Positions 34,301 through 40,300 of a stretch of 64,000 bases of DNA are shown in pieces; within the stretch, counting starts at the first letter, position 1, and each line of letters starts with the position of its first letter. The notes below the pieces were generated by a model. The model was not told where the DNA came from and ran no database searches. It was given only the letters and a program-made list of their open reading frames with translations. The stretch covers positions 17,967,951-18,031,950 of the forward strand of contig CM063504.1 in NCBI GenBank assembly GCA_032207245.1. Reading direction: 5' to 3'. The position numbers and the translations under genes were made by a program. The DNA is from Pardosa pseudoannulata. Taxonomy: Eukaryota; Arthropoda; Arachnida; Araneae; Lycosidae.

Positions 34301-37300
34301 TCGTGAGTAACCAATTCTGTTCTCTTGTATCGAACCAACAGTGTATTGAGTATAGGTTGTGCTAGGAATTTAGACAGAGTATAGTAAATTGTGTTGCATT
34401 GTGTTTAAATTAAATGTGGATAAATTGAAAGAAATCATAAATTGGTATACAAATATTTTATAGAGTGATAGAAAATAATTCCAAAGATAAGAACTATTGA
34501 CTAAGGTGTATTAAAGTTTTGAATTAAGAGTAAAGTTGAATTAAGGAATTTTGTGTGATAGTACTGTGCATAAATTTGAATTTTAAAAGTGTGTATAAAT
34601 TATAATTGTAATTGAATATTAATTGGAATTTAACTGTTCATAAATAAGATTTTTAAACTGTGTATAAATCAGAATTTTTATATTGAATATAATTTGGAAT
34701 TTTGAAATTGCATAAATTGAAAATTTTAGATTGTGTATGATGGTGTTTGATTTAAATTGTTTAATAAGATAAGAAAAATTAGTGTGTTGAGAACATTGCT
34801 TAAATTAAATATATTAGTTAATTAATTATCATAAGTTTGAACTTAAGAAAACTGTTAGCACATTATAAGAGAATATTGCAAGTATTTATTTTGTATTGTG
34901 TGCATTTGTGCTAGGAAAATTCATATTGTTTATTGTTTTGGTTTTCAAGTGATTATTATTGTGTGAATTTGAAATTTTGGAATTTGGGTTAAACGTTCTA
35001 ATATCGAGTAGTATTTGAATTGTGTTATTATTGTATTTCACGAATTATTTGAGTAGCAAGTTTGTTAGGATTTTATCTCACCATGAGTTATTTAAGTAAA
35101 GGGCGTAAGGCAGATCTCGTCGAGTTAGCCAGGGAAATTATAGGTGGAATAGACGAAACCTTGACTATGAATCAAATAAGGAAATTAATTGAGACATCGG
35201 AAGATTACGATCCAGCTTTTGTAGAAGGATGTCTAGATACTATTATTGAGGCCCGGTTAGAGAAAGAGCGCATAGAACGGGCGGATCGCGATAGTGAGAT
35301 AGAGAGAGAAAGAGAGAACAGAAAGATAGAATTAGCGAGAGAGAGGAAAAGAGAAGACAGGAAGATAGAATTAGAGAGAGAAGAGAAGGAAAGGGAGAGA
35401 GCGTTCGAATTAGAAAAATTAAGATTAAACCAGGAACGTAGGAGCGCTAATGAACTGTTAGAGGTGCCAAGACCCTCAGGGGCATCTTTGCGGAACCGGA
35501 TGCCACAATTTAATCCGGATGAGACGGACATAAATTTGTACCTTTGTCTATTCGAAAGACAAGCAGAATACTTGAAAGTACCTGAAATTGAGATGGCAGG
35601 GGAACTTATTTCATTATTACCGCTTTCAGTGTCAAATATTATTTTAAGGGAAAAGGCAGAAGAAACGCGGGATTATAAATTTGTAAAGAAACTCCTCTTA
35701 GAACGCTATAAATTATCGGCGGAAGCCCTGAGGCAAAAATTGGTACAACATGTACGAAAATCAGGAAATCTAGGGAAGGATTACCTTTTTGAGATACGCA
35801 CCTATCTAGAAGGTTGGGTATCCAGTTTAGGGGTGACAACATATGAAGGTCTACTGGATTTAATGCTAGTAGACCAGCTAAAACGGAAAATGGGGAGCGA
35901 ATTCAAGGAATCCCATCTCAAAGAATGGGAAAGTTTGGTCTCACCCGACATCGTAGCGGACTTAGGAGACAAGTATGAATTACTTAAGAAACCCGGGAAG
36001 TCCCAAACGCAGAGAAAAAAATTTCCGGATTCTCGCACCCCTGATTTTCGCAAGTTTTCAGTACCATTCAAGGCAGCAGAGAATATCAGACCCCCTCCCC
36101 AGGAAAAGGTCGAAATTAAGAATGAAAGGCCAAAAACGCCAAGAATGAATGAACTTAAACGTCGGGATTGGCGAAATACTAGGGAGTTCGAAAAGAAAAA
36201 GAACACCGATATTATTTGTTTCCAGTGTGGAGTCTCTGGGCACATTAGACCTGATTGCCCGGAATTAAAACGCAAGGAAGAGTTAAATGCTATCAATACA
36301 GGAAGTGAGGTAGTAGATCCGCTAGCACCCTATGTTAGTTTGGGCACTGTAAACAATCAAACGTGTGAAATTTTAAGAGACAGTGGGGCTAGTTATGACG
36401 TCGTTTGTAGACGATATGTTAGGCCGCAAGATTTTACAGGCGACACGGTATGGGTCACTCAGCCCTTGGATACTCACGCTATAAATTTGCCGGTGGCGAG
36501 AGTTTCGTTATGTACTAAATATGGAAATATAGATACAAAGGCTTGCGTTATCTCTGATTTCTCGAATCAACAACGATATATTTTGGGAAATTTGACGGCT
36601 GCATTATTGGAAGAGAAAAACCGAGAGAGTACTAAACAGGTTAATGCGATTACTAGGTTGCAGTCGAAAGCCCTCGAGGTAAACGGGAACTCCGATGGGG
36701 AAGAATTTAACCCCCCCCTCAGCGCAGAAGCGGGACCCGCATTGTTACAAGACACGAGCAAAGAAACTGCATACGAGCTCCCAATTGTCAACTTGACCGA
36801 CGCAGAACGGGGTCTTTTGAATGTAACCCCCGAGGAATTTGCGGTCAGCCAAGATAATTGCTCTGAGACTAGGGAATTGAAGGAACGGTTAGTAAATATA
36901 CCCGATGGAGTTGCGCATAAAGGATTCGTACGGAAAAATGGATTGTTATGCAAAATTCAGGTAAACCATTTAGGAGAGGAAAAATGTGTTTTGGTTGTAC
37001 CTGAAGGGTTACGGGAGAAAATTTTGGCTCTTTGCCACGAAGATGCTGGAGCTCACGCAGGCGTAACTAAATCGAAACAACGCCTCGCTAAATTGTTTTA
37101 TTGGCCGAAATGTTATCAAGATATGGAAACGCATGTTAAGTCTTGCCATCCTTGTCAACTAGTAGGGAATGCTATTGATACAAAGAAGGCGCCTATGCGA
37201 TTAACTCCGATAATTAGTGAACCTTTCACTAAAATTAATATAGATGCTTGTGGGCCGTTACCCGAATCTGAAAATGGGAACCGGTATATAATCACCGCGA

Positions 37301-40300
37301 TATGCCTGGCTTCTAAATACCCGGAAGCGGTGCCAGTGCCAAATATAGGTTCTGTAGCGGTCACTGATGCGCTTTTACAGATTTTCGGGCATCTAGGTTT
37401 TCCGCGCGAAGTTCAATGTGATAATGGCTCTTCGTTTACAAGCCACCTCACAACGGAATTTTTCAAACGGTTCGGGATCAAAGTGACTCACAGTTCAGTA
37501 GGTCATCCCCAAAGCAACCCAGTGGAACGCTTCCATCGCACTTTGAAAAGATTGCTTAGAGTGTTATGTTTAGAGAGCGGTGAAAGTTGGGAGCGACACC
37601 TTCCTAGTACATTATTAGCGCTACGGACGGTTGTCCATGAGAGTAACGGGTTTTCACCAGCCGAACTCCTGTACGGGAAAAATCTCCGAACACCAGAAGT
37701 TTTATTATATGAGAAATGGTTGGGAGAAACCGATGTAGAGAATCCTGTTACCGAACATATCTTAACACTCATGAATCGGCTTAAAAGAGCACGGGAACTA
37801 GCTGTGAAACGTATGGGGGAATTGCAGAAAAAACGGAAAGAGACCTATGATAAGAATGCAGTAGTTCGTAACTTTGCTGTAGGTGATTTAGTTTTAATAT
37901 TTTCCATGGCGAAGTCTAACAAATTAGCGCCTAAATGGATCGGGCCAGGAACAATAGAGGCTCGGATCTCCGATACCAATTATAGAGTCCGACCCCCAGG
38001 ACCACGAGCGAAATCAAGTAATTATCACGTGAACATGCTAAAACCCTATGTAAGGAGACCAGAATCTATCAATTGGATATGTGAGGAGAGAACGGAGGGG
38101 AAAGCGACCGAAGATGATTTTGAAATTCACGTGATAGAAAGGGGATCCTCTGATTTTGACTATAATGAAGTAGTGCGCGAGAGTGAGTTGGGATCTCGTC
38201 TAACTACAGACCAACAGCTGGCATTAAAGAAACTATTATGTAAACATGCGAAATTATTTTCAAACAATCCAGGGAAAACTGATATGGTAACCCATGATAT
38301 CGAGTTAATCTCGAATAAAGTAGTTCGATCTCGACCTTATAAGGCCTCTCACCGACAAAATGAGATATTAAAAACTGAGATCGAAAAAATGTTAAGTTTG
38401 GGAATAATAGAAGTGGGAAGCTCCGATTACGCTTCACCTATGATACTCGTCGAAAATGAAGAGCGGGAACCGCGCCCCTGTATAGACTACCGTAGGCTGA
38501 ATGAAGTGATTCGGACGGAATATTATCCGTTACCGAATATCGAAGAGCGTGTAGAACTGGTCGTAGGATCGGATTTTATATCGGTCCTCGATCTTGCCAA
38601 AGGTTACTGGCAAATACCGCTGACGAAAAAGGCCCAACGAATAGCGGCGTTTGTTACGGCGTTTGGGACGTACTGACCACTACGAATGCCGTTTGGTCTC
38701 AAGAACGCCCCCTATTTCTTTAGCAAGTTGATGGCGGACGTTTTGAATGGCTGTGAAGAGTATGCGGTCCCCTATATCGATGATATAGCAATTTTCTCAA
38801 AAACCTGGGACGAACATCTGAGCCATTTAGACGATGTTCTGACGCAAGTGACGAAGGCGCAGCTGACAATTAAGTCTTCGAAATGCCGGTTCGCTCAGAA
38901 TCATGTGAAGTATTTAGGGTATATGGTAGGAGGAGGATACCGGAATCCGGCAGAACTGAAGGTGCAATGCATCCGGGATTTCCCTCGTCCTGACACGAAA
39001 ACAAAGATAAGCGCGTTTTTAGGGCTAACGGGATACTACGCCCACTACATTCCAAATTATTCCATCATTGCCGCTCCACTAACTGACGCGTTAAAAGGAA
39101 AAGAGCGACGGGGTCAAATAAAATGGAATGAGCCGTCCGAGAATGCGTTCACTGCACTAAAAGAGGCACTTACGAAATCGCCGGTGTTGCGCGCCCCGAA
39201 TTTCGAATTACCATTTATCGTCCAGACCGATGCGTCAGATATGGGAATAGGAGTGGTGTTAGCTCAACACATTAACGGAAAGGAGCATCCGATACTGTTC
39301 CTCAGTAGAAAATTTAATACTGCGGAACAGAAATATTGCACTACTGAAAAGGAATGTGCTGCGATTATCTTTGCATTAAAAAAACTACATTTCTATCTAG
39401 ATGGGCGTGAATTCACCATAGTGACAGATCACAATCCATTAGTTTGGCTCCAAAAGAATGCGAGCTCAAACAGTCGCCTATTCCGATGGCAGCTGGTGCT
39501 GCAACAGTTTAGTTACCGTGTGGTTCACAAACCCGGCACACAGAATACTAATGCAGATGCATTAAGCCGCTGCATCACGTAAAAGGTAGTAAGAGAAGTA
39601 ACTTGTATATACTTGCATATTGTCTTTGTGTTTGTAATTATTTAATATTATAATTTAGTGTATTAAGCCAGAAATATAGTTAGTGTTATTTTGTAGTATA
39701 CTGTATATTAAGTATCTGAGTCACTGTTGGTTCCTTACGAGGAAGATCAGAGTTGCAGTTCTCCACGAGAATTGTCTGCATAATCGAGATCCACCCTGTG
39801 GAAAAATCTTATGCGAGGGGGGTGTAACGATACGTTACATGACCCCAAAAGAACGAGGAGCCGAAGGTGACCTTTCGCCGTGGACTCACGATTAGCCTCT
39901 AATAGAACCAGGTGGTCTAAGCACCCTAATTGAAAACTGTTCGTTGCCGGCTCCTCAACGTCTGGGCATTGTAAACCTGCTGAATGGAACGACGCTGTGG
40001 GAAGAGTGTAAATAATTAGAGTGCACCTTGCCGCCCATTAGCGGTTACAAAAAGGCCATTAAGTTGATTAAGTCGATGGATCCGAGGAAATGCCGTCGAC
40101 ACATCTGGAAGCAGAACAGATGATCCAAAAGGCTTGGGAATGACCACAAGATTACGTCACCTTGGTTCGGGAAGTTTCTCGAAGGACCGAGAAAAAGGGA
40201 GTGCCGCTATATAAGGAGGGACAGGACTAGAACGGAGGCTTTTGTTTCTTCTCGAGGCTTCTACCAGCTAGAGCCTGGTCGCTCGAGGACCGCTCGTATC

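What the first reader, a model, noticed from the sequence alone, without database searches (positions are those of the whole stretch)
35083..39582. Ty3/gypsy-type element with integrase before reverse transcriptase in an arthropod-like genome
Seen: one frame reads gag, CCHC knuckle, DSG protease, HHCC and D,D,E integrase with a GPY/F-like module, then RT (LDLAKGYW, YIDD) and RNase H. RT and integrase motifs are of gypsy type, but the order is that of Ty1/copia. Known: the Gmr1 group of Ty3/gypsy elements shows this order and was first described from deuterostomes. Inference: this is a Gmr1-like or independently rearranged lineage in a chelicerate-like host, with an E/R-rich coiled-coil gag. 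It looks recent and may have active relatives.
Basis: partly seen in the sequence, partly recalled or inferred. Interest (0 to 1): 0.85.

Follow-up and report, generated by a model that had tools for sequence, protein, structure and literature searches.

The report
Spider-type Gmr1-like gypsy retrotransposon
This is a recently inserted jumping gene of a known but unusual kind, in which the cutting-and-pasting enzyme comes before the copying enzyme, and its relatives are found in spiders, ticks and other animals.

Summary
Window 33006-40825 is an LTR retrotransposon, larger than the reported coding part: LTRs of 1016 and 1003 bp with 13 substitutions in 1002 columns, a 4-bp target duplication, and gag-protease-integrase-RT-RNase H in one frame. 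One in-frame stop inside RT breaks this copy.

The order is not a local accident. Twenty other matches in the same 2.4-Gb genome carry integrase-then-RT at 96% identity or more. So do 171 of the 172 database homologues in which both could be placed. The exception is a canonical pseudoscorpion protein, and a second pseudoscorpion protein has its pieces out of series. These lists favour collinear proteins, because the query spanned integrase-RT.

RT-RNase H and integrase trees place the window among spider elements, then with tick and beetle elements, then with sea urchin, hemichordate and fish elements of the same order, apart from canonical gypsy elements (support 98/92 and 80/90). The predicted gag capsid ends in a SCAN-like fold, a trait of many Gmr1 elements.

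Best reading: a member of the Gmr1-like clade of Ty3/gypsy. Crustacean members were published in 2013, so this is a known kind in a further host group. An independent arthropod rearrangement is disfavoured, not excluded.

The parts
33006..34021 (+). 5' LTR (1016 bp, TGTAACG...CGTTACA)
   Evidence: pairs with the 3' LTR
39823..40825 (+). 3' LTR (1003 bp)
   Evidence: 13 substitutions in 1002 columns (8 transitions, 5 transversions), K2P 0.0131, plus a one-base gap and a 14-base poly-T length difference
33002..33005 (.). 4-bp target-site duplication ACAT, left copy (right copy 40826-40829)
   Evidence: identical; joining the flanks with one copy gives a collinear older gypsy RT on the minus strand
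34022..35082 (+). leader between LTR and gag, with a 41-bp direct repeat at 34165-34246
34042..34053 (+). putative primer-binding site TGGTGGCAGCGC, 20 bases after the LTR; primer tRNA not identified
   Evidence: the same letters stand after the 5' LTR of the three close-family copies whose print-out reaches that far; the tRNA search did not complete
35083..36300 (+). gag: small helical N-terminal part (res. 9-38), E/R-rich long helix (44-123), capsid (about 134-304), CCHC knuckle; end approximate
   Evidence: model, mean pLDDT 83.3, pTM 0.47
35698..35994 (+). capsid C-terminal half (res. 206-304), SCAN-like fold
36214..36264 (+). CCHC zinc knuckle
   Evidence: 20.0 bits, cut-off 20.8
36325..36612 (+). 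aspartic protease region with DSG motif; boundaries approximate
   Evidence: motif; matches relatives; no Pfam hit in the window
36997..38052 (+). integrase: H2C2 zinc finger, D,D(35)E core (D721, D780, E815, invariant in the 31-row alignment), C-terminal p58_C/SH3 module
38467..38925 (+). reverse transcriptase (Pfam extent), downstream of integrase, interrupted by TGA at 38674-38676
39124..39510 (+). RNase H
   Evidence: E 1.1e-39
39815..39822 (+). polypurine tract GAGGGGGG
   Evidence: a G-rich tract of the same kind stands before the 3' LTR in sibling copies

Best explanation
This is a Gmr1-like Ty3/gypsy LTR retrotransposon of an arachnid, most likely a spider, in a recently inserted copy whose frame is now broken by one stop. 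Shown: two LTRs, a polypurine tract, one gag-pol frame in the order gag-PR-INT-RT-RNase H, one stop in RT, a 4-bp target duplication at an empty site that can be read, many sibling copies with integrase before RT, and gypsy-type RT and integrase forming one clade with deuterostome elements of the same order. Inferred from established retroelement biology: transcription starts in the LTR. One precursor is cut by the protease. Minus-strand synthesis starts at a tRNA paired near 34042, and plus-strand synthesis starts at GAGGGGGG. The integrase, released from the middle of the precursor and not from its end, joins the DNA to the host with a 4-bp stagger, preferring ATAT/ACAT in TA-rich repeats.
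For: Domain order. Of 120 first-search homologues, 119 hold both INT and the first RT part, all INT first; over all 179 proteins 171 INT first, 1 RT first, 7 lack one of the two. Own genome: 79 matches of the INT-RT piece listed, 21 of them (window included) over the whole 568 aa at 96% or more without stops; 20 of 20 fetched loci, window copy included, read INT then RT, and 18 of 20 best matches reach into RNase H. Trees: INT-RT rows one clade, RT-RNase H 98/92 with 56 rows, integrase 80/90 with 50 rows. Fish P0178 and beetle P0158 pass the Pfam SCAN cut-off; urchin P0164 is just below it. Gag fold. Empty site.
Against: No element named Gmr1 was in reach, so kinship to the type element rests on the order, on the clade with fish, hemichordate and urchin records, and on print. 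The window's own gag gives no Pfam SCAN hit at E 1, and its Foldseek matches have E above 0.3. Integrase-tree support for one INT-RT clade is only 80/90. Homologue lists are biased to collinear proteins because the queries spanned INT-RT.
Confidence: 0.92

Rival explanations
1. Independent rearrangement: the arthropod elements gained INT-before-RT on their own, apart from deuterostome Gmr1-like elements.
For: Integrase-tree support for one INT-RT clade is moderate: 80/90, present in 80% of 200 bootstrap trees.
Against: RT-RNase H tree 98/92 for one clade. An AU test of the arthropod INT-RT rows grouped with three near canonical rows gives p 0.029 (the group was named after an earlier tree was seen, so the p-value flatters). 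In the RT-RNase H tree the arthropod rows sit with two further INT-RT rows in a 26-row set at 99/94; those two were the urchin P0164 and the turtle record P0170.
Confidence: 0.06
2. Local rearrangement or assembly artefact in this one copy.
For: One stop inside RT shows that the copy is damaged.
Against: 19 other fetched loci of the same genome and 171 of 172 placed homologues share the order.
Confidence: 0.01
3. A Ty1/copia element, where INT-RT is the normal order.
For: Domain order only.
Against: The best solved-structure relative of RT-RNase H is Ty3, and Ty3 is second for integrase after foamy virus; RT-RNase H and integrase group with gypsy loci.
Confidence: 0.005

Closest known systems
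Gmr1-like clade of Ty3/gypsy (cod and Ciona in PMC8220671, frog in PMC4131045, crustaceans in PMC3587641; all read in passages)
   Same: Gypsy-type RT and integrase with integrase upstream of RT; SCAN-like gag end; LTRs.
   Different: Host is chelicerate-like; the gag SCAN part has drifted beyond the Pfam model; long E/R-rich helix in gag. Direct sequence comparison was not possible.
Tick INT-RT elements (Ixodes P0123, Haemaphysalis P0131, Amblyomma P0145)
   Same: Same order, alignable gag, 46-48% identity in integrase to the better of two queries, window or P0107.
   Different: SCAN is listed among their precomputed Pfam domains; four unnamed proteins that group with them (P0102, P0105, P0118, P0119) pass the SCAN cut-off, the window does not.
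Fish P0178 (Coilia), urchin P0164 (Diadema), hemichordate P0173 (Ptychodera) elements
   Same: Same order and same clade; SCAN above cut-off in P0178, just below in P0164.
   Different: 39-41% identity in integrase to the better of two queries. P0164 starts with a SAP domain above Pfam's cut-off. P0173 (908 aa) shows no gag.
Ty3 of yeast (PDB 7q5b, 4ol8)
   Same: RT-RNase H and integrase homologous.
   Different: Canonical order: RT-RNase H match at 718-1010, integrase match at 1089-1445.

Membership tests
Ty3/gypsy LTR retrotransposons | gypsy-type RT/RNase H and H2C2-DDE integrase | tested here: met
Ty3/gypsy LTR retrotransposons | LTR pair, polypurine tract, short target duplication | tested here: met
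   ACAT on both sides
Ty3/gypsy LTR retrotransposons | tRNA primer-binding site | tested here: inconclusive
   TGGTGGCAGCGC at 34042, also in three sibling copies, but the tRNA search did not complete
Gmr1-like clade | integrase upstream of RT (PMC6238403, PMC3587641, passages) | tested here: met
Gmr1-like clade | one RT and one integrase clade with deuterostome INT-RT elements | tested here: met
   weaker for integrase (80/90)
Gmr1-like clade | groups with the named element Gmr1 of cod | not testable with these tools
   no record bearing that name came up and none was fetched
Gmr1-like clade | SCAN in gag by sequence model: a frequent, not a defining trait (over 50% of frog Gmr elements, PMC4131045, passages) | tested here: not met
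   no Pfam SCAN hit in the window at E 1; 14 of the 31 scanned members (window included) hit at E up to 1
Gmr1-like clade | SCAN-like fold of the capsid C-terminal half (not defining) | tested here: met
Ty1/copia | copia-type RT | tested here: not met
   Ty3 and retrovirus-type relatives only; grouped with gypsy loci (no copia row was in the tree)

The most novel reading that the evidence does not exclude
The INT-before-RT gypsy order arose once and has been kept as a stable alternative polyprotein plan across arthropods and deuterostomes, together with a SCAN-type capsid end, so that the capsid part later captured by vertebrate SCAN zinc-finger genes already existed in an animal-wide retrotransposon clade that has multiplied recently in an arachnid genome with a TA-repeat insertion preference.
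Probability: 0.55. Interest if true: 0.45.

Novelty: new member of a known kind. Interest (0 to 1): 0.32.

Why it matters
Integrase position in pol is a textbook mark that separates Ty3/gypsy from Ty1/copia, and this clade breaks it. The finding brings together records of the exception from spiders, ticks and a beetle with deuterostome ones, and gives many near-identical copies in one genome in which insertion preference and polyprotein processing could be studied.

Tried and rejected
Copia membership was rejected on sequence. A local rearrangement was rejected on sibling copies. Two scans of viral contigs found no relative. A PDB sequence search with gag found nothing significant (best E 0.57). 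A search with the SCAN part of P0118 returned 23 proteins; those with an organism name are all from tick genera, so it reached no deuterostome. Loci L023-L030 from the RT family search in the own genome gave no match to my gypsy queries, so they were no use as canonical controls. Gag copies in the own genome were asked for twice and never answered.

Literature: no paper on Gmr1-like elements in chelicerates was recognised, but these are listings. One search showed 40 of 91 papers. One search listed two of three: one was opened and its match was a DOI, the other was not opened. One search found one, the crustacean paper. One search found none. One search, on SCAN and arthropod retrotransposons, listed two papers that I did not open. 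Only openly licensed papers are held, and Emerson and Thomas 2011 was not.
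Full report
OBSERVATION. The two open stretches 35083-38673 and 38677-39579 lie in one frame, separated by one TGA at 38674-38676. Pfam gives the order zinc knuckle, H2C2 finger, integrase core, integrase C-terminal module, RT, RNase H. The knuckle, SH3_Tf2-1 and the first RT part score below Pfam's cut-offs; Integrase_H2C2, rve, p58_C, the second RT part and RNase H score above. No protease model matched; the DSG motif and BLAST to relatives place it. 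So the reported order is real.

ELEMENT. LTRs lie at 33006-34021 and 39823-40825, with TGTAACG/CGTTACA ends. They differ by 13 substitutions in 1002 columns, K2P 0.0131, plus a one-base gap and a 14-base poly-T length difference (that alignment took two bases too many at the 3' end). ACAT stands on both sides. With one ACAT kept, the joined flanks read as the collinear RT of an older gypsy element on the minus strand. Gypsy integrase remnants at 29761-29430 on the same strand lie downstream of that RT and its RNase H. If they belong to the same old element, it had the canonical order, a control inside the window. No second copy of the finding's element is in the window at the DNA level.

HOMOLOGUES. 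One search listed 120 of 556 homologues of the INT-RT part. Of these 120, 119 hold both INT and the first RT part, all with INT first. After the tally over 179 proteins is 171 INT first, 1 RT first, 7 lacking one. The exception, P0160 of the pseudoscorpion Cordylochernes, is canonical: RT, RNase H, INT, then RT again. P0162 of the same species is counted as INT first, but its pieces lie out of series, so it may be canonical too. The lists favour collinear proteins by design. Records with a host name come from spiders (Araneus, Stegodyphus, Trichonephila, Argiope, Oedothorax, Uloborus), ticks (Ixodes, Ornithodoros, Haemaphysalis, Amblyomma, Rhipicephalus), a beetle (Onthophagus), an urchin (Diadema), a hemichordate (Ptychodera), a fish (Coilia) and a turtle record (Lepidochelys, its frame run on into MAM and VWD domains), besides two archaeal MAG records that I take for contamination (the animal groups are my own knowledge). 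Many rows have no host name.

CONTROLS. A search of bacterial and archaeal assemblies returned 22 gypsy loci, presumably eukaryotic contamination. INT is visible in 19, always after RT; it is not seen in L004, L012 and L016. Ty3 is canonical too.

TREES. First set: INT-RT rows form one clade in RT-RNase H (57 rows, SH-aLRT 100) and in integrase (53 rows, 99). Second set with deuterostome and beetle rows: 95 (60 rows) and 99 (57 rows). I chose 36 INT-RT homologues for spread; P0172 lacked the RT-RNase H piece. L003 was dropped as a near-copy of L002. L004, L012 and L016 were labelled canonical by assumption, and the P0160 pieces were cut at places I estimated (P0160b came out as a very long branch in the integrase tree). 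Careful trees after dropping long branches (L012, L020-L022 in RT-RNase H; P0160b, L006, L010, L018, L020, L021, L022 in integrase) give 98/92 for RT-RNase H (56 rows) and 80/90 for integrase (50 rows). The 24 rows that I call arthropod are one clade at 100/97 and 100/100. Ten of them bear arthropod names, one is the window, and 13 have no host name and were put there by their place in earlier trees, so that label is partly circular. The 13 rows called deuterostome likewise hold only four with names. A quick RT-RNase H tree without L020-L022 gave 92, and an AU test against arthropod rows joined to L005 and P0160a,b gave p 0.029. One origin of the order is therefore favoured, more firmly by RT than by integrase.

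OWN GENOME. The window lies in a genome of 2.415 Gb. The INT-RT piece (568 aa) gives 79 listed matches, a lower bound. Of these, 21 (the window included) cover residues 1-568 at 96-100% without stops; seven of the 21 lie on small contigs and could repeat others. Further matches at 54-62% show other subfamilies of the same order. All 20 fetched loci (window copy included) show INT then RT, with gag or protease upstream. In 18 the best match also reaches into RNase H; in L036 and L048 it stops short (one match per query was kept). Several sibling frames run open for more than 1,400 codons. I did not test whether any is active.

AGE AND TARGET SITES. In some searches I asked for both flanks of 20 copies, 17 of the close family and 3 more distant. 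Clean LTR pairs were read in eight close-family copies (L033, L034, L037, L044, L049, L050, C15:47830704, C9:36042569): K2P 0.0010 to 0.0231. L032 gave 0.0362 over 792 columns that do not start at the LTR end. L038 and L046 matched beyond a simple pair. L047 and C1:63160183 had only 152 and 86 columns. L036, L043, L045 and C10:95396857 gave no pair, with one side masked. Of the distant three, two gave 0.0232 and 0.0214 over partial stretches, and in C13:33971298 the match was only a GT/TA-rich simple repeat. The four bases before the 5' LTR were read in 12 close-family cases, the window included: ACAT, ATAT, ATAT, CGGT, ATAT, ATAT, GTAT, ATAT, ATGG, ACAT, TATT, ACAT. Eight of 12 are ATAT or ACAT against 2.2% of 4-mers in the window (binomial p 3e-11 if insertions are independent; the two letters were chosen after seeing the sites, and the window's rate is only a stand-in for the genome's). 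A matching 4-bp duplication is seen in 6 of 9 close-family copies with both sides read: window, L033, L034, L044, L049, L050. Three of these are ATAT within TA repeats, where a match is cheap. It is missing in L037, C15:47830704 and C9:36042569. Gypsy-type elements with such preferences are known to me from recall only.

LITERATURE. PMC3587641 (passages): Gmr1-like elements have INT upstream of RT, and four crustacean elements are called the first in protostomes. PMC6238403 (passage): the Gmr1 clade is unusual in this order. PMC8556966 (passages): Gmr1 is among five gypsy clades present in several phyla. PMC8220671 (passages): an annelid family in the Gmr1 clade. PMC4131045 (passages): SCAN in over half of frog Gmr elements only. 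PMC4592553 and PMC3424704 (passages): vertebrate SCAN domains derive from Gmr1-like gag. PMC9415403 (passage): its match was a DOI, irrelevant. The 2002 paper that defined the order is recalled, not read.

VERDICT. A Gmr1-like Ty3/gypsy retrotransposon of a chelicerate-like host, multi-copy and recent, in a copy with one broken reading frame. It adds a host group and a clearer clade picture to a known kind of element.

Noticed in passing
window 55323-56281 (-): Relic of a mariner-like transposase in broken frames: DDE_3 and HTH_32 above Pfam cut-off, Transposase_1 and HTH_48 (Mos1) below it.
   Followed up: partly
window 56544-56612 (-): Short stretch MSFLAKTKKCDLKILAEELGEKV that resembles the gag start of the same element clade (compare P0025, P0028), upstream of the mariner relic; judged by eye, not found by tblastn.
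   Followed up: partly
window 29430-33005 and 40826-41047 (-): Older degraded gypsy element into whose RT the finding's element inserted; gypsy integrase remnants lie downstream of its RT.
   Followed up: partly
window 1008-1472 (-) and 22246-22566 (-): Possible exons of a host gene on the minus strand: a fibronectin type III match just below cut-off (23.8 of 25 bits) and a stretch that looks Ig-like to me but has no Pfam hit at E 0.01.
   Followed up: no
L037 and G000:C15:47830704: Two same-strand copies 33 kb apart seem to have swapped flanks: CGGT before one and after the other, TA repeat after one and before the other. This suggests recombination between two elements.
   Followed up: no
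P0164 residues 3-36; window gag residues 9-38: The urchin relative starts with a SAP domain (Pfam above cut-off); P0118 matches Rho_N below cut-off. The window's gag start is modelled as a small helical pair and may be a diverged form.
   Followed up: partly
P0011, P0086: Homologues filed as archaeal MAG proteins are probably arthropod contamination.
   Followed up: no
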